The notes under the pieces were generated by a model that had not been told where the DNA came from, made no database searches, and saw only the letters and a list, made by a program, of their open reading frames with translations. The translations under genes were made by a program, and so were the position numbers. A stretch of DNA of 64,000 bases, taken from the NCBI RefSeq assembly GCF_007625155.1, contig NZ_VMNK01000006.1, positions 62,001 through 126,000 on the forward strand, in the 5' to 3' direction. Source of the stretch: Denitromonas halophila. Its GTDB lineage: Bacteria > Pseudomonadota > Gammaproteobacteria > Burkholderiales > Rhodocyclaceae. Below, piece by piece: positions 42,776 through 60,182 of the stretch (position 1 is its first letter; each line of letters opens with the position of its first letter).

Positions 42776-42781
42776 CCGTTG

Positions 42782-42830
42782 TGTGTAACCGCGCGCGCTT
42801 TTTGACACCGTTTCGCGCTTTTTTTGTCAC
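42782..42830. other. Candidate phage terminus with transposase-site-like repeats
   Basis: After the tRNA terminator the sequence turns to TGTGTAACCGCG followed by two similar blocks, CGCGC-T5-GACAC (42794-42808) and CGCGC-T7-GTCAC (42814-42830), starting exactly 20 bp apart. Transposable phages end in TG...CA and carry helically spaced transposase sites just inside. The exact first base is ambiguous because of the TGTGTG run. Confidence 0.5.
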
Positions 42831-42914
42831 TGCGGCCGTGGCTAGAAAAGCTGTCCGTTACCAGCACCTTCCCAGTTCACGATGACCGGCTTCTTTGACG
42901 CCTACTGCGCACCT

Positions 42915-42942
42915 CCGGCCTGGTGCGCTAACACCGGGCCGG
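42915..42942 (-). terminator. Strong hairpin after the phage late operon
   Basis: CCGGCCTGGTG (42915-42925) pairs with CACCGGGCCGG (42932-42942) over 11 bp with one wobble and a 6-nt loop. It lies 15 nt after the last late gene's stop. There is no T-run, so it may be a processing or stabilising hairpin rather than a terminator. Confidence 0.38.
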
Positions 42943-42957
42943 TCGCCCTCTTTCTGA

Positions 42958-43434
42958 TCAATACGTGAAGCGGATCTGAATGCCGTCGACGCCGGTGTTT
43001 GGCTGGTGGATGCCTGCCGAGCTGTAGTGGAAGTACTCCAGCTGCATCACGCTCCACTCCAGGCCGATTCCGAGGCGAAAATTGCTGTCGCCGATGAGGG
43101 CTGATCCATCAACGTAGGCCACTCCCAAGCGAAGGTAGTTGTTGGCGCCGAACACACGCCACGGCGGCCGGACGATCCGGGAAAACGATAGCGCCCTGAC
43201 CTCGCCTTGCGGGCCGTTGTGGGTATCGCCGGCCCCGGTGATTGCTGCGGCGATTTCCCACCCGTTGGGCAGCTCATAGCCGAACTCCCCCCAGGGCGCC
43301 GATGAATTCACGACAGTTCGGCCAAGGCCAACACGGATGCCTGGTGCAGCCTCGGCTTCCTTGATCAGAAACGCGCCATACGCAATAGCGACAATGAAGG
43401 CGGCGACGGCTACGCGGGTCCATTTGATCTTCAT
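42958..43434 (-). CDS. PagL-like lipid A 3-O-deacylase candidate (phage moron)
   Basis: 158 residues: signal peptide (VAVAAFIVAIAYGAFLIKEAEA), then an all-beta chain ending in Tyr, as in outer-membrane barrels. The C-terminal block YFHYSSAGIHQPNTGVDGIQ matches the PagL active-site strand. His136, Ser138, Gly141, Asn146 and Asp150 have exactly the spacing of His126, Ser128, Gly131, Asn136 and Glu140 of Pseudomonas PagL, the acid being Asp rather than Glu. PagL removes the 3-O-acyl chain of lipid A in the outer membrane. ATG 43434 overlaps the fibre-assembly stop, so it belongs to the phage late operon. Alternatively it may be a catalytically altered barrel. Confidence 0.66.
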   Translation of the reverse strand: MKIKWTRVAVAAFIVAIAYGAFLIKEAEAAPGIRVGLGRTVVNSSAPWGEFGYELPNGWEIAAAITGAGDTHNGPQGEVRALSFSRIVRPPWRVFGANNYLRLGVAYVDGSALIGDSNFRLGIGLEWSVMQLEYFHYSSAGIHQPNTGVDGIQIRFTY

Positions 43435-43961
43435 GGCCACACCACCAGTGCGAGCTCATCGGTATCCGCCGCATCATCAATCGCGCGCATCAGCGTCTGC
43501 TTGGTGGCAAGTGCCGATTGGAACGCCCCGGCGACCGCGATAACGATCTGCAGCGCGGCTGAAAAGCTCAGCACGTGAGGCAGGTTGTCACTTGAATAGA
43601 ACGTCACGTCAGACAGGCCTGCGGACTCAGCCAAGCGCTTTGCGGCATCGAGCTTGATAGCGCTGTCGAAACCGCCATCCCAAGTGACGCCGTCGGCGAT
43701 CACTGGTGCCTCGGCGGACAGGGCGTAGGCGGCGCGGATATCGGCGCGCTTAGACTCCTTCATCTCCTCGAACGTCGGGGGCGGCGGATCGATCAGGGTC
43801 GGTGCGCCAGTCAGGTCGGCTGCGATGATTTTTCCAATGGATTGACCGTAGAGCAGAGAGAGGTGCTCTGCGGGAGTGATGGCGACAGCATCGGGGGGCA
43901 TTGCTGCGTGGATGCTCGGGCTGTAGAACCCTCCAGCAGAAGCCGAATAGTGCATGTCCAT
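43431..43961 (-). CDS. Tail fibre assembly-like protein (DUF4376 type)
   Basis: 176 residues. The C-terminal ~100 residues (IADGVTWDGGFDSAIKLDAA... FYSSDNLPHVLSFSAALQIV... LATKQTLMRAIDDA) follow the DUF4376 pattern found in phage fibre-assembly proteins. The N-terminus is typical of such proteins (HYSASAGGFYSPSIHAAMP). It stands directly after the fibre gene, which supports a chaperone role for the distal fibre. Confidence 0.75.
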   Translation of the reverse strand: MDMHYSASAGGFYSPSIHAAMPPDAVAITPAEHLSLLYGQSIGKIIAADLTGAPTLIDPPPPTFEEMKESKRADIRAAYALSAEAPVIADGVTWDGGFDSAIKLDAAKRLAESAGLSDVTFYSSDNLPHVLSFSAALQIVIAVAGAFQSALATKQTLMRAIDDAADTDELALVVWP

Positions 43962-43975
43962 TTTGCGAGACCTCC

Positions 43976-44827
43976 TTAGTGACCAATGGCGAAGAATCGC
44001 GCACCGGCAACAGTGGATGACGGGTCAAATGCGATCGTGATCGATGCCGCATTGACGGCTGATACGCCGACCTCCGCGGTGCCGTTCACGTCGACGTTGC
44101 TTGCCAGCGCTTCCAGGCAGGCCGTCGGAAACGCAATTGGAAGCGTAGCTACGGTGGCCGTGCCTGACCGGGCCACATACCCCCACTGGAGGATCAGCCC
44201 CCCAGGCCACTTCTGGTAGCCGTTTCCAGCAAGGCTCTGATTTGCACCCTGCATAGACTCAGCCAAGCGCAGCGGGGTCAGGACTTTCGCGTTGTCGGTC
44301 TGCGCTTGGGCATCTGCCGTTGATGCAATCGACACCGATGCGGCCGGGTTCTGCAGCGACCACTTATCCAGCACCGAGTCATACCGCAGTACGACCCAAT
44401 GCCCTGCGCCGGCGACGTCTCCAGCGGCCAGAGCAAGATTGTTGCCCTTGACGATGGTCTTGGCCGCAATCGTGCCGCTGGCCGGGGTGAACGTCGGCGT
44501 GGTCGTGGCATTCGCGGCGGCGGCGCGCACGCACAGCGTCATGCCATCGATCAGCGCTGATACTTCCGGGTCGAAAACGGCGGTGATCGCGTCAGCCGTA
44601 CCGCCGGCCGCAGCAGCGCCGAGGGTGCCGATCTGGATGGCGGTGGCGAGCTGGTCGAGCGTGCCGTTATCTGGCGTGAGCCCGGCCGCGGCAATGGCGG
44701 CGACGATTTCGCGCTGGGGGTCTTCGATCGCGGCCGCGGGCGGGATGCTGCCCTCGGTGCCGGTGGTGGGGTTGCCATCGATGTACGGATCGCCGGGGTC
44801 TCCACCGACGGGTGGGTTGTAGTCCAT
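43976..44827 (-). CDS. Tail fibre protein
   Basis: 283 residues, short for a Mu fibre. The N-terminus is Gly/Pro-rich and the middle contains ADAQAQTDNAKVLTPLRLAESM, a widespread fibre module. The C-terminal part NGYQKWPGGLILQWGYVA is the gp53/tail-collar-like receptor-binding end used by many phages. It probably determines host-surface recognition. It lies 3 nt after the gp48-like gene. Confidence 0.8.
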   Translation of the reverse strand: MDYNPPVGGDPGDPYIDGNPTTGTEGSIPPAAAIEDPQREIVAAIAAAGLTPDNGTLDQLATAIQIGTLGAAAAGGTADAITAVFDPEVSALIDGMTLCVRAAAANATTTPTFTPASGTIAAKTIVKGNNLALAAGDVAGAGHWVVLRYDSVLDKWSLQNPAASVSIASTADAQAQTDNAKVLTPLRLAESMQGANQSLAGNGYQKWPGGLILQWGYVARSGTATVATLPIAFPTACLEALASNVDVNGTAEVGVSAVNAASITIAFDPSSTVAGARFFAIGH

Positions 44828-44830
44828 TGG

Positions 44831-45415
44831 TTATGCTCCTTCGTAGGATACAAATAGCCGGGTGTGGGCGGGCTTGAGCCGCTGGAACGTGCACTCCAGG
44901 TCTTCTGCCCGGGTGATCTTGAGCAGCGGGTCTGTGCCAACTTGCGACTCGCCACAGCGGAAATAGGTGACGCGTGGCCCAGCCAACCGAACCCGCCAGA
45001 CAAATCGCATCTGAGCCGGGTTCAGCGCCTGAACTCCGCACTGGCTGATGCCGCAGATAAACGGGCGGTACTCTTCGATTTCGACGGAGTAGCCAAGCCG
45101 CTCGGCGACACCCATGAAGTAGGCGCGGCTCGCGCCGCCACCGCCTGCAATCCGGGCCACCAGGGCGGCGCGGCGCTCTTGCAGCGTGGTGGCCAGTGCG
45201 GCGCTGCACTTGTCCGGCAACCCGGCGACGCGCTCCCAATCGGTGATCAGCGCCAGCGTGTTGCGCGGGTCGGCTTCGTCATGCAAGGCGCTGGCGGCCA
45301 GCTGGGCCGCATCGAGGCGCGCGCCCTCGGCGTCGGCCTCGGCGCCGAGCAGCTCGGCATTGGGGTCGATCGCGCCGGGCGGCAGCAGGCGGCGCAGGAG
45401 ATCGGCGTGCATCAC
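44831..45415 (-). CDS. Baseplate/tail protein, Mu gp48-like (DUF2313)
   Basis: 194 residues of the YmfQ/DUF2313 family, which link baseplate and fibres in contractile tails. The start LLRRLLPPGAI and the middle DERGGGGASRAYFMGVAERLGY-like pattern (here ARIAGGGGASRAYFMGVAE) are typical, with the conserved YRPFICGISQCG cysteines. It overlaps gp47 by 4 nt. Confidence 0.87.
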   Translation of the reverse strand: MMHADLLRRLLPPGAIDPNAELLGAEADAEGARLDAAQLAASALHDEADPRNTLALITDWERVAGLPDKCSAALATTLQERRAALVARIAGGGGASRAYFMGVAERLGYSVEIEEYRPFICGISQCGVQALNPAQMRFVWRVRLAGPRVTYFRCGESQVGTDPLLKITRAEDLECTFQRLKPAHTRLFVSYEGA

Positions 45416-46467
45416 GACAGGCTCACCGTGCCGAGAACGGCGAGCTCGACGGCGGTGTCATCTACCGTGGTGGTGACATTGGCCGCCGGCGACGTGAGGG
45501 TAAAGTCGACAACGCCGTCGATATCGCTGATCAGTGCCGCGATCTTGCTCCGGTAAACGGTGTCACCCGGCGCCAGCGTGGCGAAGTACGAAACCAGGGC
45601 GCCCTGGATGGCGTCACTGGTAGCGGCCAAGGTGATTCCGTCGAGCACCAGCGCAGCCGTTACGTCGACCTGCACTTCGGCGGGGCCGAAGGCAAGGAAG
45701 TCCGCGGTCGCTGGTCGCTCCATGTCGATATGGGTTTGCACACTCGCGATCAGCTGTGCGCTTGGTTGCCCCGACGCTGGCAGGGGCACGACGTCGACCG
45801 TCCCGTCCCCGCGACGCAAGGAGAAAACATAGGCTCGCTCGACGCCAGGCACCTCGCGCGCCCAAGCCTCGTAGTCGTGCTTCGCCCCACCATGTGGCGG
45901 CTTCCGGATGCGGTAGAGCAAGCGATCGAGCAGCGATGCGGGGGTTTCCACGTCGGTGCCGCCGGTCATCAGGGTGATGGTGGCTGCGCTGTCCACGCCG
46001 GAGGGGGCGCTGGTGAGGGTGAGCTGCGTCGCGGCGTCGGCGTTGCCGGCGGCGCCCGGCACCACGGCCTGCGCGGCGATGGCGATGCTGCCGCCGCCGG
46101 GGATGGTGTCTGCCGCGGTGGTGACATAGGCCACCCCGGCCGATGTGCGCGCCTCGGTACCGACAAGCACGGGTGCGCCAGGCGTGCCGGTGAAGGTGAT
46201 CGTTCCGCTTGCCACGCTGGCGGCCTTTAGTTGGATCTCGAACAGGCTGGCCCAGCGCTCCAGGTAGTCGTCATCGGCGGTGTCTGGCAGGATCTGGCGG
46301 GCGATCCACTGCTGGTGCTGATAGAGACCTTCGATCGCGGCCGCCACCGCGTTGGCGCGGATGGCGTAGTCGGAGTCCGACCCCACGGCGGCGCCGGGCA
46401 GCTGGTTGGCGATGTCGCGCAGGATCGCGTCGCGGATGTCGGGGTAGTCGGGCGTGGTGAAGGGCAT
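45412..46467 (-). CDS. Baseplate assembly protein J (Mu gp47)
   Basis: 351 residues. The N-terminal block (YPDIRDAILRDIANQLPGAAVGSDSD) and the central PHGGAKHDYEAWAREVPGVERAYV are diagnostic of the baseplate wedge protein J/gp47. It forms the periphery of the contractile baseplate. It starts 1 nt after the gp46 stop. Confidence 0.94.
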   Translation of the reverse strand: MPFTTPDYPDIRDAILRDIANQLPGAAVGSDSDYAIRANAVAAAIEGLYQHQQWIARQILPDTADDDYLERWASLFEIQLKAASVASGTITFTGTPGAPVLVGTEARTSAGVAYVTTAADTIPGGGSIAIAAQAVVPGAAGNADAATQLTLTSAPSGVDSAATITLMTGGTDVETPASLLDRLLYRIRKPPHGGAKHDYEAWAREVPGVERAYVFSLRRGDGTVDVVPLPASGQPSAQLIASVQTHIDMERPATADFLAFGPAEVQVDVTAALVLDGITLAATSDAIQGALVSYFATLAPGDTVYRSKIAALISDIDGVVDFTLTSPAANVTTTVDDTAVELAVLGTVSLS

Positions 46468-46468
46468 A

Positions 46469-46843
46469 TCAGATCACTGTCACGGGGTGGGTGAAGGTCT
46501 GGCGGCCGCCGCCGGCATCGGTCACTTCGATGCGCAGATGCAGGCGGCCGTTACCGGGGCGCTCGGTGGTGATGTCGATGGCCGTGGCGCGGCCGTCGTC
46601 GAGGATGGGCTGCAGTGCCACTTGGGCGTACTGGCGCGCCAGCACTGCCACGCGGGCCAGATCCTTTTCGCGCGCCAGCTCGTGCAGTCGGCTGCCCATG
46701 GTGGGCTCGGCCCAGTAGCTGCCGCGCGGGGTCATCAGGCGCAGATAGACGGCGTTGGCCAGGCCCGCGGCGGGGTCGCGCTGCGCGGCGCCGGCGCTCA
46801 GGCGGTAGTCGCGGGTATCGGGGTCGATCCAGGCGTCGGTCAT
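46469..46843 (-). CDS. Baseplate wedge protein, Mu gp46 family
   Basis: 124 residues of the GP46/gp25-like group (LTNAVYLRLMTPRGSYWAEP-type segment: LANAVYLRLMTPRGSYW, then MGSRLHELAREKDLARV). The Mu gp46 and T4 gp25 families are sheath-initiator wedge proteins. It is placed between V and J as expected. Confidence 0.88.
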   Translation of the reverse strand: MTDAWIDPDTRDYRLSAGAAQRDPAAGLANAVYLRLMTPRGSYWAEPTMGSRLHELAREKDLARVAVLARQYAQVALQPILDDGRATAIDITTERPGNGRLHLRIEVTDAGGGRQTFTHPVTVI

Positions 46844-46845
46844 GG

Positions 46846-47418
46846 TCAGGTCTGCTGCGTCGGCGTGTTGGTTTCGCCGTTCGTGTCGTTTTCGTGGTGG
46901 GTGTGGATGTCGTACAGGTCGCGCATGGCCGACATCGACTGCCCTCCGGTGGCGAACAGGTCGGTGATCTCGCCGTCGGCCTGCACCTGCGCCGTGGTGG
47001 TGATCAGCGGCGTGTCGATCTGCACCTTGGTGGCGGCCGTGATCTTGAGCGTGTTCGTCGTCACCTCGATCAGCCGCCCGCGCTTGAGCACGATGCTGTC
47101 GCCCTCGTCGGTGTAGATGGCCACCTCGCCATCCTTGAGCCCCTTGATGCGATACGCGCCGTGCTCGGTGCCAATCACGATGCCATGGGCCGTCTTGCCA
47201 CCGATTGGCAGCACCACCGCCATGGTGCCGGGCGGCGGTACAGACGTGAGTCCGTAGTGCTGGAACAGCTCGGCGTCGCGGATCGGCTCGCCGGCCAGGC
47301 CCTCAGCCTGCACCAGCGCCACGGCCGGGGCGGCGTTGACGCGCGAGATGACGGCGCGGAAGGCCTTTCGAACCTGGCCCATGGCGCGCTGGACGCGGGC
47401 GTCGATGGTCTTGATCAT
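46846..47418 (-). CDS. Baseplate assembly protein V (Mu gp45, spike)
   Basis: 190 residues. The N-terminal OB-like part (LAGEPIRDAELFQHYGLTSVPPPGTMAVVLPIGG in pieces) and the C-terminal beta-helix-like region match gpV/gp45. The very end HTHHENDTNGETNTPTQ carries the HxH iron-binding tip motif (HTH) of membrane-piercing spikes. It overlaps gene P by 4 nt. Confidence 0.92.
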   Translation of the reverse strand: MIKTIDARVQRAMGQVRKAFRAVISRVNAAPAVALVQAEGLAGEPIRDAELFQHYGLTSVPPPGTMAVVLPIGGKTAHGIVIGTEHGAYRIKGLKDGEVAIYTDEGDSIVLKRGRLIEVTTNTLKITAATKVQIDTPLITTTAQVQADGEITDLFATGGQSMSAMRDLYDIHTHHENDTNGETNTPTQQT

Positions 47419-48539
47419 TGCGCGCCACCGGACAGGTCAATGATCTTGCCCGGCAGGCTGTTCTTGCCGCGCCGGTGTTTGCGCTTGTGCGGATGCGCTT
47501 CGATCGCCCACACGCCGTCCTCGGCCAGCGTCAGCTCGGTGGAGGTGCCGGCCGCGCGTGAGGCGCTGAAGCGGCGCGCCATGATGAACATGGGCGCGTC
47601 GATGCCATGCGGCTCGCTCACCACATGCACCCGCTGGCCCGCCGCCCACAGAAGGCCGTTGCCCGGCTCGCCCGGCGCCACGATGCGAAAGCCCTTGACC
47701 GTGGCCGTGAGCGAGTAACCGCCCAGGCGGCCGTCGGAGATGATTTTGCGCGCGCGCGACGCGCACACCGCGGTGTTGTCAGCCTCGTGGTCGATTGCGA
47801 TGCGCGGCCGGTACCACGACACGCCAGTGTCCTCGACGGTGGCGCGCAGCGCATGCTTGCCCGATTCGGTCTCGGTGCCGTGGGTCTGGCCCAGCACAGT
47901 CACTCGCGAGTGGCGCCCCGCGATGGAGCGACGCTCCTCGAGGCGCTCGACGTTGGTGGTGCCGTTGGTGCGCAGCACCAGCGTGGCCACCGGCGCGGTG
48001 GTGTAGTCCGGCCCGCCCACCACCAGGGTGCCGTCGGGTTCGAACCACGGCCACAGGCCATTGGCTGCGGCCACGTTGGCCAGGGCGTCCCATGCGGTAT
48101 CGCCGGGCTCGACATTGACCTTCTCGCGTGTGCGCGTGGCCACCGCGTCAATGCGGACGCGTGTCACGCCCAGGGGCTTGACGATCTTGGCCGCCACATC
48201 GGCCAGGCCCACTTGGCGGGCGGAGAAGATCGGCGCGCTGCAATCGACCAGCACCGCCGCGCCGTCACGGCCCGACAGCGACAGGTCATGACGGCCACGC
48301 TCGACCGAGCGGGTCACTGCATCCACACGCCCGGTCATGATGCGTTCGCCGTCGATGCGGATCTCGACCGGCGCGCCCGGCGCCACCGCTGTCGGCAGCG
48401 ACTGCGCGCTGGTAGTGCCCAGCGATACGTGCCAGGCGTCGGCCGGCACCAGCAGGTCGCTATCGGCCTCGGCGCGGTCCCAGCTGTCGTGCACGCGGCC
48501 GCCAATCAGCACCTGGAGGCTGTCATTGCGCGTAGGCAT
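47415..48539 (-). CDS. Baseplate hub protein P (Mu gp44, late control D-like)
   Basis: 374 residues. It corresponds to the Mu P/gp44 and T4 gp27-like hub that holds the spike. Recognisable segments are the N-terminal LQVLIGGRVHDSWDRAEAD, DLSLSGRDGAAVLVDCSA and the LWPWFEPDGTLVVGGPDY-type core. It overlaps the N gene by 17 nt. Confidence 0.9.
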   Translation of the reverse strand: MPTRNDSLQVLIGGRVHDSWDRAEADSDLLVPADAWHVSLGTTSAQSLPTAVAPGAPVEIRIDGERIMTGRVDAVTRSVERGRHDLSLSGRDGAAVLVDCSAPIFSARQVGLADVAAKIVKPLGVTRVRIDAVATRTREKVNVEPGDTAWDALANVAAANGLWPWFEPDGTLVVGGPDYTTAPVATLVLRTNGTTNVERLEERRSIAGRHSRVTVLGQTHGTETESGKHALRATVEDTGVSWYRPRIAIDHEADNTAVCASRARKIISDGRLGGYSLTATVKGFRIVAPGEPGNGLLWAAGQRVHVVSEPHGIDAPMFIMARRFSASRAAGTSTELTLAEDGVWAIEAHPHKRKHRRGKNSLPGKIIDLSGGAQ

Positions 48540-49743
48540 TGATGCGGTCTCCGGTGTTAAGCGCGTTGGGCGTGCGCAGGGTGTTCAGGCGCCACAGCTC
48601 GGGCGCGCGGGTGTGGTCGCCATACAGGCGATGGGCGATCAGACGCAGGTTGCCCGGCGCCGTGAGCGTGCGCACCACCAACGGCGGGCGCGCTTCGATG
48701 ATGGCCTGCGCGGCCTCCTGCACCGCCAGCGCCTGGGCGCGCAGCGGCTCGACGATGCGGCGGGCCGTCTCCAGCGGGTAGAGCGCGCGCACCGCCTCGA
48801 TCGCCGCATCCAGTGCGGCGCGGGCGGCGTTGGCCACCGTCTCGATATCGACCGGCGTCAGGGTGGGGGTTTCGGCCTCGGCGCCGAGCAGCGCGGCGGC
48901 GTTCTCGGCCTGGCCGGTGGCTACCGTCACCTGCGTGGTTACTTTTGCCGCCTCGGCGGCCTGCGATTCGGTCGGAGTAACGGACGCGCTCACCGAGGAG
49001 GTGCCCGAGCCGAACAGCGCATCGAAGCGCCCGAAACCGGTGGAAACCGCGCGCCAGTCGGTCATCACGTCGCTGGTGAAGTCGCGCGTATCGACCATGC
49101 CATCGACCAGCGAGGCCAGGTCGTTTGCCCACGCGCGCGGCTCGGTCAGCACGTCGGCGCCCGAGAGCACCACGCCCTGCACCTCGGCCAGCCCCTGGGT
49201 GATCGGCGCCAGCAGGGTCTCGCGCAGTTCGTTGAAGGCCTTGAGCGGCGCCGAGGCGCGCAGGCGCTCGATCACGCCCGCCACTGCACCGGCGGCGGCG
49301 CTTCGCACCACGGCGCTTTGCGCCGACACCGCTTGTGCCTGCTGCACCGGCAGCGCGCGCGAATAGAAGGGCTGGGGCTGATCGCGCGCCTCGACGAACT
49401 CCAGCGACACGCGGGCTTGATCGACCCCGTCCGCCTCGTGTTCGATGCCGTAGCGGCGCAGATGCACATTCATGGCGCCAAACACCGGATGCACCAACTC
49501 GCCGGCGCCGGCCTGGTCGAATACGGCAATAGCCGCCTTCAGGCGGGCCTCGTAGTCGTCACCATAGAACAGCGCGGTCAGCGTCGGGCTGCGCGGTTCG
49601 CGGCCCATGTCCTCCACGTCGGCGCCATCCACCCACGGATAGGTGTGCAGCGCCAGCGCACGGGCGGCGCCGTCGCTGGTGCTAAGCACCTCCAGGGCGA
49701 CGCCGCGGAAGGTGCATTCGAGGAGGGAATCTGCCCATGCCAT
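48523..49743 (-). CDS. DNA circularisation/tail protein N (Mu gp43)
   Basis: 406 residues. The N-terminus WADSLLECTFRGVALEVLS and DGADVEDMGREPRSPTLTALFYGDDYEARLKA (in pieces) define the DNA-circulation N-terminal domain of Mu gpN. A LysM-like C-terminal stretch (TLTAPGNLRLIAHRLYGDHT... LNTGDRINAY) is typical. No Shine-Dalgarno precedes ATG 49743. A repeated dyad lies 33 nt upstream. Confidence 0.9.
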   Translation of the reverse strand: MAWADSLLECTFRGVALEVLSTSDGAARALALHTYPWVDGADVEDMGREPRSPTLTALFYGDDYEARLKAAIAVFDQAGAGELVHPVFGAMNVHLRRYGIEHEADGVDQARVSLEFVEARDQPQPFYSRALPVQQAQAVSAQSAVVRSAAAGAVAGVIERLRASAPLKAFNELRETLLAPITQGLAEVQGVVLSGADVLTEPRAWANDLASLVDGMVDTRDFTSDVMTDWRAVSTGFGRFDALFGSGTSSVSASVTPTESQAAEAAKVTTQVTVATGQAENAAALLGAEAETPTLTPVDIETVANAARAALDAAIEAVRALYPLETARRIVEPLRAQALAVQEAAQAIIEARPPLVVRTLTAPGNLRLIAHRLYGDHTRAPELWRLNTLRTPNALNTGDRINAYAQ

Positions 49744-49776
49744 GGGCGCACGTTACGCGCGCGCGCGGGGCCGGAT

Positions 49777-49798
49777 CAGGCGGAAGGGGTTCCGCCTG
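49777..49798. repeat. Phage intergenic dyad repeat, copy 1 (upstream of N)
   Basis: Core CAGGCGGAAGGGGTTCCG at 49777-49794; here the symmetry extends to a perfect 9-bp inverted repeat with a GGGG spacer (to 49798). It ends 33 nt before the N start codon and is followed (toward that start) by alternating CG. The same core recurs at 55299 and 61698. Confidence 0.9.
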
Positions 49799-49802
49799 AG
49801 GC

Positions 49803-51722
49803 TCAGTTGCGGCTGGCTTCTCGGGCGTTGCGGTCGTTGACCACGGTGGCGATGGTGCGTCCATCGACCTGGATATTGATGGTCTGCGACTGGGCGGCCA
49901 TCATTTCCATGTAGCGCGCCTCGGCCTCGACCGCGCGCTTGGCGTCTTCGTTGCCGAAAAACGCCAGGGCCTTGGCCACGCCCCGCCCGATCGAATCGCC
50001 GAACTCGGTGCCCTCGATCATGGTCTTGTTGATCAATGTGCCGGCGCCGTAGCCCGCCGCGCCGGCAATGCCGACGCCCCCGGCAATGGTGCCGATGCCG
50101 GTCGCCCCCAGGCTGGCCATCTGGGTGAGCGATGCGCCACCGGCAAAGGCGCCGGTCACACCCAGTTTTGTCAGCAGCCGGCTACCGAGGCCGCCGGCCG
50201 CACCCGCCGCACCAGCGGCAGCACCGCCGCGCAACATGCCAGACAGGCCAGCCGCACCACTGGCCACCGCCAGCGCCGTCAAACCCTTCGTAGCCGCCGA
50301 CAGCGCCGCCGTCAGGCCGGGGTATTCGCGGGCGTATTCGGTCAGCTTCTCGGCCGCATCGCCCACCGCCGGCGCCAGCTTCTCGAAAGCGGTATTGCTG
50401 GCAATGGCGGCCTCGTTCGCTGCCTGTTGCGTCTTGAAGCCGGCCTCCTGGGCGATCACTGCAAAGTTCGCCTCGCCGGCGCCGCCGCCGGCCATCACCT
50501 GGCGCTGCACGTCGGCCATGTAGCCGCCGTTGTTCATCAGCGCCACCAGCGCCATCATGGCCTGGCGGTCTTGCACCAGGGCGCCCAGCGACGAGCCCTG
50601 CAGAATGTCCGCCTGGCTGGCCAGCAAGGTGCGCTTGTCGCCGGCCGGGGCGCCGGCCAGCTGGCTCTGCAGGCGCTTGAATTCCGGGTTGGCGTCGGCC
50701 ATCTGGCGGGCCAGCGCCACGAAGGCATCCAGGCTATCCATACCCTTGCCGCGCGCGGCAGACAGCGTGCCCGGCAGGTCGATGCCCATCTTCTTGGCGT
50801 CGAGCGCGGTCTCACGGCTGTTGATCTTGGCCAGCAGGTTGACCAGGTTGTTACCGGCCTCGTCCTTTGTGCCGGCGGTGATGGCGCTGGCCTGGTTGGC
50901 GGCCAGGATCTTGGCCAGCCCGTCGATGCCATTGAGGCCAGACAAGCGCCCGGCCGCCATCTGCTGCGGTAGCCAGCGGGCCATGTCGCGCAATTCAAAG
51001 CCGCCCGCCTGGCCGGCGGTAATCGCCATGTCGATGGCGCGGCCGATCTGGTCCGGTGCAATGCCAAAGGTCTGCATGCCCCGGATGCCGATGTTGGCCA
51101 GCTCGGTGGGCGCGGCGCCGCTGGCGGTGGCTTTGCGCATCAGCGTGGGCAGCTGGCGCATGGCGTCGCTCACCGGCATGGCGCCGGAGGCGATCAGGGT
51201 GTCGAGGGTTTCGGCGGCGCTGTCGCGGGTGCCGCCGCCCTGGCGCACGGCGCGCACGATGGCGGCGTCCAGCTCGCGCTTGCCGGCGATGCGCCCGAGG
51301 GTGTCGCGGCCGCTGAATGCGGTGTTGGCCATGCCGGCCAGACGCATGCCGTAGTCCATGGTCTGGCCGAGCGGGCGGCCCACTACATAGGCACCGGCGG
51401 CGGCGCCGGCGGCCAGGTCGCGCATGCGGCCGAGCACCCGCACTGCGCTGCCGCCGTTGTCGACCACCGCGCGCAGGGTATTGACCAAGGCCACCGGGCC
51501 GCGCTCGTTGGCCATGCGGCGCACCGTGCCCAACAGCCCGCGCGACTCGCGCTCGGCGCGCTTGGTGTTGCGCTCGTACTCCAGCATGCTGCGACCGAGC
51601 TGATTGACCGCGCGGTCGGATTGGCCCACCGCCGTGCGCATGTCGCGCATGCCGCGCTCGACCTGCTTCGAGGCCTGGTCGCGCAGGCGCATCACCAGGC
51701 TGAATTCGAGGTTGTTGCTCAT
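49803..51722 (-). CDS. Tail tape measure protein (Mu gp42)
   Basis: 639 residues. It sets tail length and probably helps DNA ejection. The N-terminal part is helical with charged heptads (VMRLRDQASKQVERGMRDMR). The long middle carries the TP901/Mu tape-measure pattern (TAENLDTLIASGAMPVSDAM-like: AETLDTLIASGAMPVSDAMR). The last third has Gly/Ala-rich hydrophobic segments that could insert into membrane. ATG 51722 overlaps the frameshifted chaperone stop by 4 nt. Confidence 0.94.
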   Translation of the reverse strand: MSNNLEFSLVMRLRDQASKQVERGMRDMRTAVGQSDRAVNQLGRSMLEYERNTKRAERESRGLLGTVRRMANERGPVALVNTLRAVVDNGGSAVRVLGRMRDLAAGAAAGAYVVGRPLGQTMDYGMRLAGMANTAFSGRDTLGRIAGKRELDAAIVRAVRQGGGTRDSAAETLDTLIASGAMPVSDAMRQLPTLMRKATASGAAPTELANIGIRGMQTFGIAPDQIGRAIDMAITAGQAGGFELRDMARWLPQQMAAGRLSGLNGIDGLAKILAANQASAITAGTKDEAGNNLVNLLAKINSRETALDAKKMGIDLPGTLSAARGKGMDSLDAFVALARQMADANPEFKRLQSQLAGAPAGDKRTLLASQADILQGSSLGALVQDRQAMMALVALMNNGGYMADVQRQVMAGGGAGEANFAVIAQEAGFKTQQAANEAAIASNTAFEKLAPAVGDAAEKLTEYAREYPGLTAALSAATKGLTALAVASGAAGLSGMLRGGAAAGAAGAAGGLGSRLLTKLGVTGAFAGGASLTQMASLGATGIGTIAGGVGIAGAAGYGAGTLINKTMIEGTEFGDSIGRGVAKALAFFGNEDAKRAVEAEARYMEMMAAQSQTINIQVDGRTIATVVNDRNAREASRN

Positions 51723-52227
51723 GAGCGCACCTTGCGCGGATTGATGAAGCGTTTGCGGCTCACGCCGGGGCTGGCGGCGGCCACCGCGGCGCCCAGACTG
51801 GGCAGTGTCACACCCTGGGGCAGCGCGGCCAGCAGGGCATGCACTTCGGCCTCCGGCAAATCGAGCACGCCGGCGGGGTTAAGCCCGGCGCGGGCAAACA
51901 GAACCTGCGCCAGGCGGATGGGCTTTAGTCGATCTTCAAATCGTCGAGTTTTTTTTCGAGCTCGTCCGACGTGTTCTCCAGCACCACGCCGTCGCGGTCT
52001 GTCAGGTCCATAACCACGTCGGTGGTGATCTGCTCGACCCCCGACACAGTCAGCCGGCGCGCCAGCGTGGCGTAACGCAGGCGGCTGGGCGACGCATCCG
52101 GCCCGCACTCCTCGAGCGCCTCGACCGAGTCGCGCACCGTGCCGGCACGCAGGGTGAAATCGGTGGCGCGCTTGACGCCTTTGCCCATCGGGACGCCATG
52201 CACGAACTTGCCTTCGACGGTAATCAT
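51719..52227 (-). CDS. Tail assembly chaperone, -1 frameshift product (gp41-gp41')
   Basis: Readthrough from gp41 by a -1 slip at the A8 run (51956-51949) gives a 169-residue product: gp41 up to its EKK, then TRRFEDRLKPIRLAQVLFARAG and a C-terminal ~70-residue domain ending RKRFINPRKVRS. Such G/GT-type pairs coat the tape measure during tail assembly in most long-tailed phages. The extension has no credible start of its own, and its stop overlaps the tape measure ATG. Confidence 0.8.
51925..52227 (-). CDS. Tail assembly chaperone gp41 (unshifted product)
   Basis: 100-residue acidic protein (MITVEGKFVHGVPMGKGVKR...) between tube and tape measure genes, the position of Mu gp41. It ends DLKID shortly after the slippery run. 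ATG 52227 overlaps the tube stop by 4 nt. Confidence 0.87.
   Translation of the reverse strand: MITVEGKFVHGVPMGKGVKRATDFTLRAGTVRDSVEALEECGPDASPSRLRYATLARRLTVSGVEQITTDVVMDLTDRDGVVLENTSDELEKKLDDLKID
51949..51956 (-). promoter_or_regulatory. Slippery site for -1 ribosomal frameshift
   Basis: On the minus strand the codons read GAA AAA AAA CTC, that is A-AAA-AAA, a perfect X-XXY-YYZ heptamer, eight nucleotides of A in all. Slipping back by one nucleotide leads into the exact frame that continues for about 75 codons to the stop at 51719. Confidence 0.8.
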
Positions 52228-52598
52228 TCGCTCACCTCGCGCAGCGCCATCATCGACAGGTCGCGCTTGGCGTCGCCATCCACGCCATACTTGCCGCCGG
52301 TCTCGGTGACAAAGCAGTCGAGGTAGCTGGTGCGCTTGCCGCCGCCCAGCGGCGACACGGTCACCTTGGCGCCCTGGATGTTCTTCCAGTCGGGCTCGGA
52401 GCCGTCCGCCGGGATCGACACCGTCAGCCGCAGGCTGAACTCTTCGATGCCCTTGGAAAAGCCCTTGGCTCGACCGGTCTTGTTCATGGTCTTGACCAGG
52501 CGGCGGCCGGTGTTGTGGGTCACGTCGAGGCTGTCGACCTCGATCTCCTGGCCATCGATCTCCATCACGATGGCGCCCAGGTATTCTTGCAAAGCCAT
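52224..52598 (-). CDS. Tail tube protein (Mu gp40-like)
   Basis: 124 residues directly after the sheath gene. The beta-rich sequence (IVMEIDGQEIEVDSLDVTHN... VKTMNKTGRAKGFSKGIEEF... YLDCFVTETGGKYGVDG) agrees with tube proteins of Mu-like contractile tails. They polymerise as the inner conduit for DNA. Confidence 0.87.
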   Translation of the reverse strand: MALQEYLGAIVMEIDGQEIEVDSLDVTHNTGRRLVKTMNKTGRAKGFSKGIEEFSLRLTVSIPADGSEPDWKNIQGAKVTVSPLGGGKRTSYLDCFVTETGGKYGVDGDAKRDLSMMALREVSE

Positions 52599-52613
52599 GG
52601 TGGCCTCCTTTGA

Positions 52614-54035
52614 TTACAGCAGCAGGTCGATGCGGCCGGCGAACACGTGCAAGCCATTGACCACGTCGACCGGGATCTTGCAGTTCAGGCGATTGGGATC
52701 TTGGGAGTCGCGCTCGCAGATCACGCCGGGCAAGTTCTCGGTCACGTTCTCGACGATCTCCAGCTCCTCGAGCTTGTAGAGGACGTCGATGATCTCGCCT
52801 CGCACCTTGTCCGGCGTGCGGGAGGAGAGCTTCTCACGCGGGAAGCGCAACGAAATGCGCTCGCGACACGCCTTGCGGACGTAGTCCAGCGTCCGAATAG
52901 TGGTCAGATCGAGCAGCGAGATATCGGGAATGCTCTGCGGGTTCAGCGTGTAGGTGGTGATGGCGCGAACGATCTGCACTTTCTCGCCTGGCCCGACTTC
53001 GGTCGGCGTCACGCCGTTGTACAGCGAAGACTCCTGCTCGGTGCGGGACATCCGGTCTTCAAGCGGGGGGGCCAGAATCCCGGTCAGCGGTAAATCGTCC
53101 AAGGGACGCGCCGGGTCTTCCTCCCCAGCGACCACAGCGCCATAACTCGCAGCGACAGCAAACGACGGGTTCGCGCAAGCCGGCACGAGGATCTCGCTGA
53201 TGCGGCCCATGTTGATCGTCCCTGCGAGCGTAGTTGCCTGCGCTAGCGTGCCTACATGCGCACACACGCCGATCGCGCCGCGTTGCTCGAGCGGGCCGGA
53301 CACGTTGTCCAGGTGCGTGCGCAGCGCCGTGAGGCTGGTGCTGTCATTGAGCGACGAGATGATCACGTCGTGACCACCCGCAAACACCGCTGCCAGCGGC
53401 GTGGCAATGTCCGGATCGACCGAGCCACCGCTCATCGCCACCGTCGTGGCGGTGATGCCGGCCGCGGTGCTGGTCGCGGTAACGGCAATCCCGTTGCCCA
53501 GCGTGCCCTTGTTGCGTGCCGTGGGGGTGATCACCGCGCCGGCCACCGAGGCCGTCACCGGCAGGTCGCCCAGGGCGTCGAGCTTTGCCTCCATGGCCGC
53601 AGCCACGTCGGCGGCCGTATCGCCCGAGGCAATGGCCAACTCGGTGCGCATGCCGGCAATCCACACCGTGAGCACGCCGGTGCTCGTGGCGGTGCCGGCC
53701 AGGGTGATGGTGCCGGTGGCCGCGGCCGAGCCGACGGCGTCGTCCATGGCAATCACGGACAGCGCCAGGTAGGGGTTGGCGACGAGCGCGGCGCGCACCA
53801 TCAGGTGGGCGATCGAGCCCTCGCCGAAGTACTCGGCGGCCTCATCGTCGCCGAACACCTCCACCGCCACGCCGGCGGCCTGGCTGCCGGCGGCCAGCTT
53901 CTGGGCCACGATCAGCGTTTCCTGGCGGTTACCCGGCAGGGTGCGCACGGCCAGCTTTGTGTTGAACTCGAAGTACTTGCCCGGCTTGCGGATACTGCTC
54001 GGGATCTGGTCGAAGCTGATATTGGGCGATGCCAT
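52614..54035 (-). CDS. Contractile tail sheath protein (Mu gpL)
   Basis: 473 residues. The N-terminus PNISFDQIPSSIRKPGKYFEFN and the C-terminal RTLDYVRKACRERISLRFPREKLSSR (in pieces) and GVICERDSQDPNRLNCKIP segments match Mu gpL. It forms the outer contractile layer. A central hypervariable Ala/Thr-rich insertion (~150-230) is normal for the family. Confidence 0.95.
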   Translation of the reverse strand: MASPNISFDQIPSSIRKPGKYFEFNTKLAVRTLPGNRQETLIVAQKLAAGSQAAGVAVEVFGDDEAAEYFGEGSIAHLMVRAALVANPYLALSVIAMDDAVGSAAATGTITLAGTATSTGVLTVWIAGMRTELAIASGDTAADVAAAMEAKLDALGDLPVTASVAGAVITPTARNKGTLGNGIAVTATSTAAGITATTVAMSGGSVDPDIATPLAAVFAGGHDVIISSLNDSTSLTALRTHLDNVSGPLEQRGAIGVCAHVGTLAQATTLAGTINMGRISEILVPACANPSFAVAASYGAVVAGEEDPARPLDDLPLTGILAPPLEDRMSRTEQESSLYNGVTPTEVGPGEKVQIVRAITTYTLNPQSIPDISLLDLTTIRTLDYVRKACRERISLRFPREKLSSRTPDKVRGEIIDVLYKLEELEIVENVTENLPGVICERDSQDPNRLNCKIPVDVVNGLHVFAGRIDLLL

Positions 54036-54037
54036 GA

Positions 54038-54217
54038 TCAGGCCTCCTTACGCTTGGCCGGGGTCTTTGCCTCGGCCTGGATAATCAGGTCGCCATCGCG
54101 CAGGCGACGGCGGTAGTACGCGGTATCGGGCACGTCGGCGGTTTCCGCCTCGGTGATGTATTTGCGCGGCTTGCCTTCGATTGGCACGCGCACGCCCGGT
54201 TTTGCGGTCACGATCAT
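54038..54217 (-). CDS. Small tail-region protein (DUF2635, Mu gp38-like)
   Basis: 59 residues, MIVTAKPGVRVPIEGKPRKY..., with the DUF2635 signature of Mu-like phages. ATG 54217 overlaps the gp37 stop (ATGA) and is preceded by GGAGGG. It lies 2 nt before the sheath gene. Function unknown in the family. Confidence 0.87.
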   Translation of the reverse strand: MIVTAKPGVRVPIEGKPRKYITEAETADVPDTAYYRRRLRDGDLIIQAEAKTPAKRKEA

Positions 54218-54801
54218 TGCGATCCCTCCAGGGTGATCAGGTCGGACGCATCGGCCGTGCCGTCGTCCGGGGTGAGGTGGTAGTTGATGCCGACCTTGAG
54301 CAGGCCGCCCACGATTTCTTCGGCGGGTTTTTCGACGAGCCAGCGGGTGTGCCATTCCTGGGCATAGACGGCGATCGACTTGCCGCGCAGCTGAGCGTTG
54401 TAGAGGGTGCGCTTGCGCCCCGGCTCGAAGGCCTCAATGGCGATGCCGAAGTCCTGCCCGATCAGCAGGGACTGCACGTCATCCAGCATCTGATAGGCGC
54501 CCGGTTCGCTCACGCTGCCATGGCGCGTCTCGCGCTCGCCGCGCACATTGCGGGCGGCCACCAGCACCGCGAAGGTGTTGGCCTCGACCCACCGGGTGCG
54601 CGAGGTGCCGAATCGTGTCGGCTTTGCGGACCCCGTCCATGTAATCCAGCAGGCGGGCCACTTGCGCACCACCTCGTCGAGCTGGCCGTCAAGCTCGCCC
54701 GCGTAGCTGGCCACCGTGCCGAACTTGTAGCCCAGCCCGGCCGCGCCGGCCACGCGGGCAATGACCGCGTCTTCTACCTGGGCGACCATGGGGGCCGTCA
54801 T
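54214..54801 (-). CDS. Tail terminator/neck protein, Mu gp37-like (DUF1834)
   Basis: 195 residues of the gp37/DUF1834 group, placed between gp36 and gp38. The recognisable block is WVEANTFAVLVAARNVRGE with LDDVQSLLIGQDFGI. The family is thought to cap the tail or neck. It overlaps both neighbours by 4 nt. Confidence 0.87.
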   Translation of the reverse strand: MTAPMVAQVEDAVIARVAGAAGLGYKFGTVASYAGELDGQLDEVVRKWPACWITWTGSAKPTRFGTSRTRWVEANTFAVLVAARNVRGERETRHGSVSEPGAYQMLDDVQSLLIGQDFGIAIEAFEPGRKRTLYNAQLRGKSIAVYAQEWHTRWLVEKPAEEIVGGLLKVGINYHLTPDDGTADASDLITLEGSQ

Positions 54802-55217
54802 ACCAGCCCGCCCTTGCCGCGCCCGAACAGCTTGGCGCCGGTGGAGATCTCGACCAGGTGCTCGGCTTGCTCGCCGGCGTCGGCAGCGCCGCCCAGGTTG
54901 GCGCGCCCATCGGCCACCCGCGACAAAAACCCGATCGCATCCTTGTAACGCGCGCGGATCTCTTCAGTCACCGGGGTCGGGCCGCCGCACAGGCGGTAAC
55001 GGGTAATGTCGCAGGCGATGTCCTGCAGCATGCGGCTGGCCGCCACCGGCGTGGTGTACCGGCCAGACAGATAGGCATCGATCTCCGCATCGGCACCGAC
55101 CAGGGCGTCATCGAGAATGGCATCGTCGATCGCGCCGGCGTCGGTGCGGTCGGACAGCATCACCACCTCGGACTCACCGAAGCGGGAAATCATCGCCGCA
55201 CGGTCTGCATAGCTCAC
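54798..55217 (-). CDS. Head-tail connector protein, Mu gp36-like (DUF1320)
   Basis: 139 residues starting with GTG 55217 behind GGAGG. The pattern YADRAAMISRFGESEVVMLSD...AEIDAYLSGRYTTPV...LQDIACDITRYRL is the DUF1320 signature of the Mu gp36 neck/adaptor family. Confidence 0.92.
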   Translation of the reverse strand: MSYADRAAMISRFGESEVVMLSDRTDAGAIDDAILDDALVGADAEIDAYLSGRYTTPVAASRMLQDIACDITRYRLCGGPTPVTEEIRARYKDAIGFLSRVADGRANLGGAADAGEQAEHLVEISTGAKLFGRGKGGLV

Positions 55218-55298
55218 ATCACACCCTCCGCTGCGTTAATCGACCCAATGGGTTTTACTCAATGAGTCCGCAGTTTCGCGCGCGCGCGAAGTGGGCGT

Positions 55299-55316
55299 CA
55301 GGCGGAAGGGGTTCCG
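55299..55316. repeat. Phage intergenic dyad repeat, copy 2 (upstream of gp36)
   Basis: CAGGCGGAAGGGGTTCCG, identical to the core of copies 1 and 3. The symmetric part CGGAA-N4-TTCCG covers 55303-55316. It ends 81 nt before the gp36 start. As in copy 1, an alternating CGCGCGCGCG run follows within about 10 nt on the gp36 side. Confidence 0.9.
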
Positions 55317-55317
55317 G

Positions 55318-55479
55318 CTAAAGCCAGTGTTCGATCAGTCCGATCACCCGATCCAGCAGGGTACAAAGCAGGGAATACAGCAGAAGATCGCGCAGACCGG
55401 ATGCGGCCTTGGCCTGGGGCGTTTGCGTTTTCTGGCCACGATGGTTCCGGGGTGGTTTCGATGCCAACCACCTTGTCAC
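55318..55479 (-). CDS. Possible 53-residue membrane-helix protein
   Basis: A GTG-initiated frame in the 319-nt gap between gp36 and the next gene. It has a polar, basic N-terminal half (RNHRGQKTQTPQAKAASG) and a hydrophobic helix (LRDLLLYSLLCTLLDRVIGL) ending IEHWL, TAG. The composition looks protein-like, but there is no good Shine-Dalgarno and no family was recognised. Its stop touches repeat copy 2. Confidence 0.33.
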   Translation of the reverse strand: MTRWLASKPPRNHRGQKTQTPQAKAASGLRDLLLYSLLCTLLDRVIGLIEHWL

Positions 55480-55536
55480 GGCAAAATCGAGGTACGCGCA
55501 CCCCCGTGTTGTGTCGTTGCGCCTTACAACATCCGG

Positions 55537-55842
55537 TCAGAAAACCCGGCGAACCGATTGCACGGCCGGCAGCTCCCGGCTCTGACCGTCGGACAGCACC
55601 ACGCGCGCAACCAGCAGATAGTCGACACCCACTGCCCCACCCGACACCCGCTGTAAGACCTCGACTCCCACCAGCGCGGGAGCGCCCACTAGCACGGCCG
55701 CGGGGTTGGCATCGGTGCCGCGCAGGACGCTCGCGTCACACGGATCGACCGATACGATGGTGACGCCGGCGGGGATCTGGCCCGTATAGTCGAAGGTCAG
55801 GGTGACGGCTTCGCCGGGGCGGCGGGGTTCGAACGCTCTCAT
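55537..55842 (-). CDS. Small phage structural protein (fibre-tail adaptor-like)
   Basis: 101 residues, beta-rich: MRAFEPRRPGEAVTLTFDYT, IPAGVTIVSVDPCDASVLRG, VDYLLVARVVLSDGQSRELP. The pattern recalls short adaptor proteins that attach to capsid-surface or fibre proteins in other phages. That is a resemblance, not a firm family call. It overlaps the preceding repeat-rich gene by 4 nt. Confidence 0.6.
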   Translation of the reverse strand: MRAFEPRRPGEAVTLTFDYTGQIPAGVTIVSVDPCDASVLRGTDANPAAVLVGAPALVGVEVLQRVSGGAVGVDYLLVARVVLSDGQSRELPAVQSVRRVF

Positions 55843-57374: not shown

Positions 57375-57376
57375 GC

Positions 57377-57697
57377 TTACTCCAATATCTGCACGTCAAC
57401 CACGACTGACGCAGACTCACCCCCGATCACGCGGACACGTATGGCAGCACTATGCTGGCGCACGAGGACACCCCACATAGCGACTGCGAGCGGGTCTGTG
57501 CTGGAATGTCGTGTCGCGATTGGATACCAGTCAGCCCCATCCGGCGATACCTCGACGATGACAATGGCCGATTTCGTCGGGCCAACGGCACCGTTATCCA
57601 CTTTGATGTAAACGGTCTGTTCGGCAGTCGTCGTCGGATGCTCAGAACTGATGTACTCACCAAGCGGCGGCACTGTTTTGTTCTTTACAATGTTCAT
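57377..57697 (-). CDS. Unrecognised phage protein, 106 residues
   Basis: MNIVKNKTVPPLGEYISSEH..., beta-strand-like throughout, with IVIVEVSPDGADWYPIATRH and a terminal SVVVDVQILE strand. It resembles small jelly-roll decoration proteins in composition. No family recognised. It lies 2 nt before the repeat-rich gene and overlaps its upstream neighbour by 4 nt. Confidence 0.65.
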   Translation of the reverse strand: MNIVKNKTVPPLGEYISSEHPTTTAEQTVYIKVDNGAVGPTKSAIVIVEVSPDGADWYPIATRHSSTDPLAVAMWGVLVRQHSAAIRVRVIGGESASVVVDVQILE

Positions 57698-58140: not shown

Positions 58141-58142
58141 GA

Positions 58143-58676: not shown

Positions 58677-58681
58677 GGCGG

Positions 58682-59143: not shown

Positions 59144-59162
59144 GAGTCTTCTCCTGGGTGAG

Positions 59163-59193
59163 AAAAAGCCGGCACAGGACGCCGCCGGCTTTT
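59163..59193 (-). terminator. Intrinsic terminator after the major capsid gene
   Basis: Ten-base arms AAAAGCCGGC (59164-59173) and GCCGGCTTTT (59184-59193) with a 10-nt loop. On the minus strand the stem is followed by TTTTT (59167-59163). It would reduce transcription from T into gp35 and is symmetric enough to act in both directions. Confidence 0.8.
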
Positions 59194-59205
59194 GCGCTTG
59201 GCTCT

Positions 59206-59236
59206 GACCGGCAGGCTGCGTCCTGGCCTGCCGGTC
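59206..59236 (-). other. Second strong hairpin after the major capsid gene
   Basis: GACCGGCAGGC (59206-59216) and GCCTGCCGGTC (59226-59236) pair perfectly over 11 bp around a 9-nt loop. It lies 35 nt after the capsid stop and just ahead of the terminator hairpin, with no T-run of its own. It could protect the capsid mRNA 3' end. Confidence 0.7.
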
Positions 59237-59270
59237 TTCATCGCCCATCGCTCACGGGTTATTCGTCAGA

Positions 59271-60167: not shown

Positions 60168-60182
60168 CGGGGCTGTCTCCTG

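What the first reader, a model, noticed from the sequence alone, without database searches (positions are those of the whole stretch)
42958..43434. Phage late operon ends in a PagL-like lipid A deacylase candidate with Asp in place of catalytic Glu
The predicted exported barrel has His136, Ser138, Gly141, Asn146 and Asp150, each exactly ten residues on from His126, Ser128, Gly131, Asn136 and Glu140 of Pseudomonas PagL. Coupling by ATGA to the fibre-assembly gene puts it under late or moron control. A phage that edits lipid A could block superinfection, help release or alter the lysogen's immune profile. I know of no Mu-like phage described with this function.
Basis: partly seen in the sequence, partly recalled or inferred. 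Interest (0 to 1): 0.72.

Follow-up and report, generated by a model that had tools for sequence, protein, structure and literature searches.

The report
Phage-borne outer-membrane lipid A deacylase
A virus integrated in a bacterium related to Denitromonas carries a gene for a small outer-membrane enzyme that probably trims the bacterium's lipid A, and uncultured viruses carry relatives of it among their late genes, in several cases beside the genes that burst the cell.

Summary
Window 42958-43434 (minus strand) encodes a 158-aa predicted 8-stranded barrel that passes Pfam's PagL cut-off (31.2 vs 23 bits); PagL (2erv) is its best PDB fold match twice. It is the last gene of a complete Mu-like prophage (42784-83620, 5-bp duplication TTGTG) and overlaps the fibre-assembly gene by ATGA.

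'Asp for catalytic Glu' is ordinary: in 30 chromosomal homologues this column is N 16, D 6, E 3, S 3, T 2. In the protein's own phage clade it is Asp in 27 of 27 non-redundant sequences.

The larger finding: the gene belongs to a PagL clade of uncultured phage contigs, not found in 50,697 phage records at the sensitivity used. It lies in late regions beside fibre genes, with holin, amidase or Rz-like spanin genes within three genes in at least 9 of 26 contigs.

Most likely it is a late lipid A 3-O-deacylase; a role in outer-membrane lysis or release is my best guess (about 0.4), with receptor or superinfection effects as main rival. Lysogenic immune modulation is unlikely. No activity has been shown.

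The parts
42958..43434 (-). PagL-like gene, 158 aa plus stop; last gene of the Mu-like prophage
   Evidence: PF09411, 31.2 bits; 2erv best fold match
43348..43434 (-). N-terminal signal sequence, residues 1-29, ending in A-E-A (cleavage site inferred from the recalled AxA rule)
   Evidence: sequence; helix 5-23 in the model; no signal-peptide program was used
42985..43029 (-). active-site stretch H136-Y-S138-S-A-G-I-H-Q-P-N146-T-G148-V-D150
   Evidence: in the own phage clade, own sequence included, H and S in 40 of 40 and D in 39 of 39 readable loci
43431..43434 (-). ATGA overlap between the stop of the fibre-assembly gene and the start of the PagL-like gene
43431..43961 (-). tail fibre assembly gene (phrog_188)
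   Evidence: E 4.9e-14
43976..44827 (-). tail fibre gene (phrog_4209)
   Evidence: E 7.8e-22
44831..46843 (-). three baseplate wedge genes (phrog_203, phrog_6, phrog_180) of the late region
47415..48539 (-). baseplate hub gene (phrog_177)
   Evidence: E 5.8e-127
52614..54035 (-). tail sheath gene (phrog_165)
   Evidence: E 1.6e-170
42779..42783 (.). 5-bp target duplication TTGTG at the PagL end; the second copy is at 83621-83625, beyond the window
42784..64000 (.). Mu-like prophage, part inside the window (whole element 42784-83620 in window numbering, 40,837 bp); begins TGTAAC, ends CCCCACA

Best explanation
The gene encodes a phage-borne, PagL-type outer-membrane esterase made late in infection as the last product of the virion operon. 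It is exported, folds into an 8-stranded barrel and most likely uses His136 and Ser138 with Asp150 to cut the 3-O-linked acyl chain from lipid A. Because its place ties it to the late genes, and in several relatives to the lysis genes, its likeliest use is at the end of the cycle: deacylated lipid A changes shape and weakens or curves the outer membrane, so helping the outer-membrane step of lysis or clean virion release. Shown: gene, predicted fold, conserved residues, late position, purifying selection, phage clade. Inferred: export, late timing, enzyme activity, which acyl chain is cut, and the lysis role.
For: PF09411 above cut-off. AF2 models of 8 strands, best pLDDT 74.0 from three own-clade sequences and 89.4 from 45 rows, both with 2erv PagL as best PDB match. 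In the own phage clade (window sequence included) H136 and S138 in 40 of 40 and D150 in 39 of 39 readable loci; of the 16 loci lacking the search pattern that holds the Asp, 15 are readable and all have it. dN/dS 0.17, 0.24 and 0.33 for the three pairs of Denitromonas-group copies. ATGA overlap, no sigma-70-like site in 42784-45000. Holin, amidase or Rz-like spanin genes within three genes of PagL in 9 of 26 non-redundant contigs; 13 of the 26 had a neighbour scanned singly. In G006 the gene is followed by an unassigned gene, a phrog_6637 gene that I read as holin-like, and an endolysin. A P. aeruginosa-like PagL lies among NinG, Q-like and holin-type genes in other viral contigs. PagL expression raised vesiculation about 4-fold in Salmonella and the inactive variant did not significantly (PMC4958258, passages). 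LysB of phage Ms6 shows an esterase acting in the third lysis step (PMC5707550, abstract).
Against: Identity to PagL is only about 20%, TM 0.52-0.58, rmsd 4.2-6.0; no catalytic superposition was possible. In this phage PagL is about 26 kb from its own amidase and holin, not in a lysis cassette. Rz-like spanin genes lie near PagL in L244, L257, L259 and L263, so it does not simply replace them. For 17 of 26 contigs no lysis gene was shown within three genes (13 contigs had no neighbour scanned singly, some are cut short), and enrichment over background was not tested. The only terminator-like sites on its strand lie inside the gene and are at chance level. Nothing shows activity.
Confidence: 0.45

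Rival explanations
1. Surface alteration: the late deacylase changes lipopolysaccharide so that sister virions or cell debris no longer bind, or superinfecting phages are excluded, rather than helping lysis.
For: Recurrent neighbourhood of tail fibre and fibre-assembly genes (DUF4376 in 9 of 117 scanned neighbours; tail fibre families). Phage fibres commonly bind LPS (recalled).
Against: Fibres usually bind core or O-antigen, not the acyl chains (recalled). Late expression would leave little time for exclusion (inference). At least 9 of 26 relatives are also near lysis genes.
Confidence: 0.27
2. Lysogenic conversion: a moron that modifies the lysogen's lipid A for the bacterium's benefit (stress, antimicrobial peptides, grazing).
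For: Distal end of a Mu-like genome, where Mu has gin/com/mom (recalled). The host genome has no other PF09411 match, and 7 of 9 congeneric genomes have none, two of them only 86% complete. LpxR, another lipid A deacylase, is reported with antiterminator Q among genes conserved around prophage-encoded sRNAs of E. coli (PMC13192938, passage).
Against: No promoter-like site by a simple scan and overlap with the preceding gene. Relatives sit beside baseplate and fibre genes, in contigs up to 138 kb, some of which may be strictly lytic (inference).
Confidence: 0.15
3. A PagL-fold outer-membrane protein that is not a lipid A deacylase: another lipid esterase or a non-enzymatic barrel.
For: Low identity; small outer-membrane barrels turn up repeatedly in the viral structure library, none named PagL among the 50 rows shown; E133 is invariant in the own phage clade and unexplained.
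Against: H136, S138 and G148 invariant in 30 of 30 chromosomal sequences and in all readable own-clade sequences; PagL is the best fold match ahead of OmpA, OprF, NspA and PagP.
Confidence: 0.18

Closest known systems
PagL, lipid A 3-O-deacylase (PF09411; P. aeruginosa structure 2erv)
   Same: predicted 8-stranded barrel, H-x-S pair, N and G of the same motif with identical spacing, export signal by inspection
   Different: about 20% identity; Asp where P. aeruginosa has Glu; encoded by phages, in a clade apart from the sampled chromosomal PagLs
LpxR (PF09982) on E. coli prophages, with antiterminator Q among conserved neighbours (PMC13192938, passage)
   Same: lipid A deacylase carried by prophages in the late control region
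   Different: different Pfam family (one search lists PagL only); removes the 3'-acyloxyacyl group (recalled)
LysB, mycolyl-arabinogalactan esterase of mycobacteriophage Ms6 (PMC5707550, abstract)
   Same: works-like analogy: phage esterase aimed at the outer envelope lipid, third lysis step
   Different: no homology looked for or claimed; different envelope and bond; lysis role shown for LysB, only inferred here
Mu late-end genes gin/com/mom (recalled)
   Same: position at the genome end after the fibre genes
   Different: mom modifies DNA; here an envelope enzyme in the late region

Membership tests
PagL (PF09411) | profile score over the curated cut-off | tested here: met
   31.2 bits, cut-off 23; also 9 of 9 virus relatives tested, 24.8-145.4 bits
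PagL (PF09411) | 8-stranded outer-membrane barrel of PagL fold | tested here: met
   prediction only: pLDDT 89.4, eight long strands; 2erv best PDB match E 1e-4, TM 0.52-0.58; the 3-row model agrees
PagL (PF09411) | catalytic His and Ser (H-x-S) | tested here: met
   H136, S138; 30 of 30 chromosomal and 40 of 40 own-clade sequences
PagL (PF09411) | third triad residue, Glu140 in P. aeruginosa | tested here: inconclusive
   Glu itself is not met: Asp here. But Glu is not general in the family: E in 3 of 30, N 16, D 6, S 3, T 2
PagL (PF09411) | removes the 3-O acyl chain of lipid A | not testable with these tools
   needs mass spectrometry
Mu-like transposable phage | MuA-type transposase and repressor in Mu order | tested here: met
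   phrog_310 E 1.2e-182, repressor phrog_2328 E 4.8e-17; order
Mu-like transposable phage | TG..CA ends and 5-bp target duplication | tested here: met
   TTGTG on both sides, uninterrupted sites in G001, G006, G003
lysis-cassette outer-membrane effector (works like LysB or spanin) | gene lies in the lysis cassette | tested here: inconclusive
   not met in this phage (about 26 kb away); holin, amidase or spanin within three genes in 9 of 26 relatives
lysis-cassette outer-membrane effector (works like LysB or spanin) | loss impairs outer-membrane disruption or release | not testable with these tools
   needs a deletion phage
LpxR (PF09982) | PF09982 match | tested here: not met
   only PF09411 listed at E up to 10

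The most novel reading that the evidence does not exclude
Many phages of Gram-negative bacteria carry their own PagL clade with an Asp-type triad and use enzymatic lipid A deacylation as part of the outer-membrane step of lysis: a lipid-cutting counterpart, in ordinary Gram-negatives, of mycobacteriophage LysB, working with or beside spanins.
Probability: 0.35. Interest if true: 0.82.

Novelty: new variant of a known kind. Interest (0 to 1): 0.62.

Why it matters
If these proteins act as PagL does, phages edit lipid A itself and do so late, in several cases next to lysis genes. That would add an enzymatic route to the outer-membrane step of Gram-negative lysis, name a recurrent late gene of uncultured phages, and give small lipid A deacylases of interest for vesicle and endotoxin work. 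The family is in the viral-contig collection but was not found in 50,697 phage records at the sensitivity used.

Tried and rejected
A hit in the jumbo phage BcepSauron (E 0.2) proved to lie inside a 335-aa protein and was dropped as chance. Integration into the neighbouring tRNA-Met was considered and rejected: in 50 kb the only repeat of the tRNA region was an inverted 13-mer, and the 5-bp duplication explains the ends. Scans of viral contigs with the window protein and with the three-copy alignment found only the own phage; a profile of chromosomal PagLs matched 4 stretches, none confirmed, probably because its single peptide pattern was strict; degenerate DNA motif scans then found kin. That Asp marks a dead or exotic enzyme was rejected on the column counts. 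That viral PagL replaces spanins was rejected as a general rule: Rz-like spanin genes lie near it in L244, L257, L259 and L263 (lipobox candidates). A lipobox scan found no o-spanin candidate on the late strand of this prophage, nor on the + strand of the G006 and G003 stretches searched; a first version with too strict a threshold missed its control. PHROG 15758 (E 0.027) was not pursued. Whether lysis genes are nearer than to a random phage gene was not tested. The viral fold library gave many small barrels, none named PagL in the 50 rows shown. No match in plasmids.

Full report
The gene. Window 42958-43434, minus strand, encodes 158 aa (P0001). Pfam gives one match, PF09411 PagL, 31.2 bits against a cut-off of 23, E 2.7e-7, residues 69-158. 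NCBIfam gives none and PHROGs only a weak unnamed family (E 0.027). phmmer against PDB sequences puts PagL 2erv first but not significantly (E 0.067); in that alignment H136, S138, G141, N146 and D150 stand opposite 2erv positions ten lower.

Fold. AlphaFold2 with three own-clade sequences gave eight strands, pLDDT 74.0, pTM 0.66 (the five models 74.0 to 33.0). With 45 rows (window protein, its kin of kinds a and b below, five P. aeruginosa-like PagLs) it gave pLDDT 89.4, pTM 0.76, eight long strands. Foldseek against PDB ranked 2erv first both times (best E 2.3e-4 and 1.0e-4, TM 0.52-0.58, rmsd 4.2 and 6.0), ahead of other 8-stranded barrels. The second alignment contained PagLs and could lean that way; the first did not. 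H136 and S138 lie on strand 7, D150 on strand 8. No superposition was made.

The Asp. In 30 chromosomal PF09411 stretches out of the 150-genome relatives search, aligned with the three Denitromonas-group copies, the column of D150 is N 16, D 6, E 3, S 3, T 2, while H136 and S138 are invariant. In the own phage clade fetched (40 loci, the window's phage included; 27 non-redundant at 95%), it is Asp in 39 of 39 readable loci and 27 of 27 non-redundant ones, with H and S in 40 of 40. One of the two search patterns held this Asp; of the 16 loci lacking that pattern, 15 are readable there and all have Asp. So the Asp is a character of the clade, not a defect.

The element. A MuA-type transposase (phrog_310, E 1.2e-182), a CII-like regulator and a repressor lie at the far end; terminase, portal, sheath and tube between; baseplate and fibre genes next to PagL. 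Flanks matched to congeneric genomes and read there show uninterrupted sites in G001, G006 and G003; the junctions give a 40,837-bp element, 42784-83620, with TG..CA ends and a TTGTG duplication. PagL is its last gene, 174 bp from the end. Amidase (phrog_822) and holin (phrog_3427) of this phage are at L037:7661-8164 and 7226-7654, about 26 kb away. G+C is 0.61 for PagL and for the fibre-assembly gene, 0.668 for the prophage, 0.645 for the host part of the window. The host is congeneric with Denitromonas iodatirespirans: locus L048 of that species matches G003:C3 in place and contig length. The host genome has no other PF09411 match.

Kin in the genus. Two congeneric genomes carry copies with 70% and 68% identity in other phage settings: in G003 between a fibre-assembly gene and a tail sheath (phrog_23; P2-type, recalled); in G006 after a tail fibre-like gene (phrog_1640) and a small gene of unknown function, followed by an unassigned gene, a phrog_6637 gene and an endolysin. 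dN/dS (Nei-Gojobori) is 0.17, 0.24 and 0.33 for the three pairs. A profile of the three (A1) gives 3 strong and 7 weak matches in 395 genomes of the family, and the own genome plus 6 weak ones in 369 of the class. The wider profile A6 matches 6 of 398 genomes of the phylum at E 1e-6: the own genome, one at 155.3 bits with a stop in its frame, and four at 30.6-35.2 bits.

Kin in viruses. tblastn with the window protein, one congeneric copy, one chromosomal PagL and one member each of kinds a, b and c found no relative in 50,697 phage records (one search listed four chance-level records). The collections may leave out records near the window's genome, as the tool says. Motif scans of the viral contigs gave 36 stretches (Ser as AGY) and at least 120, of which 80 were listed (Ser as TCN): 116 loci, 114 with the motif in an open frame, sorted by motif into 26 close kin of the window protein (a), 22 distant ones (b) and 66 P. 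aeruginosa-PagL-like (c). Nine tested members (three of a, five of b, one of c) all pass the PagL cut-off, 24.8-145.4 bits. A tree of 81 sequences (25 of 27 a, 18 b, 8 of 16 c, 28 of 30 chromosomal, two congeneric copies) separates a, b and the Denitromonas-group copies (45 rows) from chromosomal and kind-c rows (36) with support 99/99. Warnings: long branches in b, a chromosomal sample from one order, and a, b and c sampled from viral contigs only, so cellular members of the clade may be missing.

Neighbourhoods. For 26 non-redundant contigs of kind a, 142 neighbours within three genes (frames of 1000 aa or more left out) were listed; 117 were scanned, the 25 dropped being 16 opposite-strand frames and 9 same-strand frames of 50-112 aa. 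Pfam at E 0.001: DUF4376 9, 3TM holin 5, Amidase_2 2, tail collar 2, Amidase_3, GH108, SLT and two other holin families 1 each (25 of 31 families shown). PHROGs: tail fibre and baseplate wedge families, holin 5, Rz-like spanin 3, amidase 2 (25 of 217 families shown). One by one, 13 of the 26 contigs had neighbours scanned, and 9 show a named lysis family: L244, L248, L249, L257, L259, L261, L262, L263, L270; L105, L254, L266 and L277 do not. A small one-TM protein of no named family adjoins PagL in 13 of 27. For kind c, 16 non-redundant contigs at 97% among 65 with a callable frame, 69 of 94 neighbours scanned: NinG 6, Q-like antiterminators 4 and 2, 'hol-like chemotaxis' 8, holin 3; in contigs read by eye, NinG- or Q-like genes lie before and holin-like genes after PagL. 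The hosts of these contigs were not looked up. For kind b, 18 contigs (4 near-copies dropped), 73 of 84 neighbours: peptide deformylase 3, tail fibre and terminase families, endolysin, Mom-like 1.

How it probably works. Shown: the gene, its predicted fold, conserved triad candidates, place in the late region, selection, recurrence in phages. Inferred: export, lipid A as substrate, the 3-O position, late timing. The purpose is inferred from position: recurrent place beside fibre genes and, in at least 9 of 26, lysis genes; overlap with the preceding gene; no sigma-70-like site in 42784-45000 (other promoter types not covered). PagL raised vesiculation about 4-fold in Salmonella while an inactive form did not significantly (PMC4958258, passages), a plausible route to a weaker outer membrane. 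Mu itself uses gp23/gp23.1 spanins (PMC9239132, passages); no o-spanin lipobox candidate was seen on the late strand here, a weak negative. I put the enzyme identity at about 0.8 and the lysis or release role at about 0.4.

Literature. Among the rows listed I saw no paper on phage-encoded PagL: 30 of 1,100; 13 of 13; 20 of 98; 1 of 1; 20 of 25; 9 of 9; 15 of 24; none held the terms; listings only. LpxR on E. coli prophages is in print (PMC13192938, passage), and PMC11332146 (passages) reports lipid A synthesis genes at ends of Salmonella prophage regions. The PagL structure paper was not held; the Glu140 triad is recalled and from the finding. The library lacks most subscription journals, so a prior report may exist.

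Noticed in passing
L124-L203 (kind c, e.g. L133:3653-4162, L157:7513-8022, L197:7125-7631): A P. aeruginosa-like PagL (Glu type) recurs in lambdoid-type viral contigs among NinG, Q-like and holin-type genes: 66 of the 116 motif loci, 16 non-redundant among the 65 with a callable frame. Hosts not looked up.
   Followed up: partly
L094:6095-6316, L104:5879-6151 and others: A conserved small one-TM protein of no named family (73-91 aa, one copy cut to 51) directly after viral PagL, in several cases overlapping its stop codon; 13 of 27 non-redundant contigs.
   Followed up: partly
window 43036-43038 (codon of E133 of P0001) and virus relatives: Glu133, three residues before the catalytic His, is invariant in 40 of 40 own-clade sequences; its role is unexplained.
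   Followed up: no
L106:4537-5007, L112:10797-11276, L127:8095-8568: Peptide deformylase genes lie within three genes of kind-b PagL.
   Followed up: no
kind-b neighbours, alignment A10: One kind-b neighbour is a Mom-like DNA modification gene, recalling Mu's mom position.
   Followed up: no
L052, L061 (G004:C40:35629-35970 and 16893-16968): A congeneric genome seems to hold another element at the same tRNA-Met: the two pieces, about 18.7 kb apart, both match the end of the tRNA.
   Followed up: no
L279 (G1173:C18:68159-68578): A virus-type PagL at 155.3 bits in a genome of another family, with one stop inside the frame, perhaps a decayed prophage copy. Described only.
   Followed up: no
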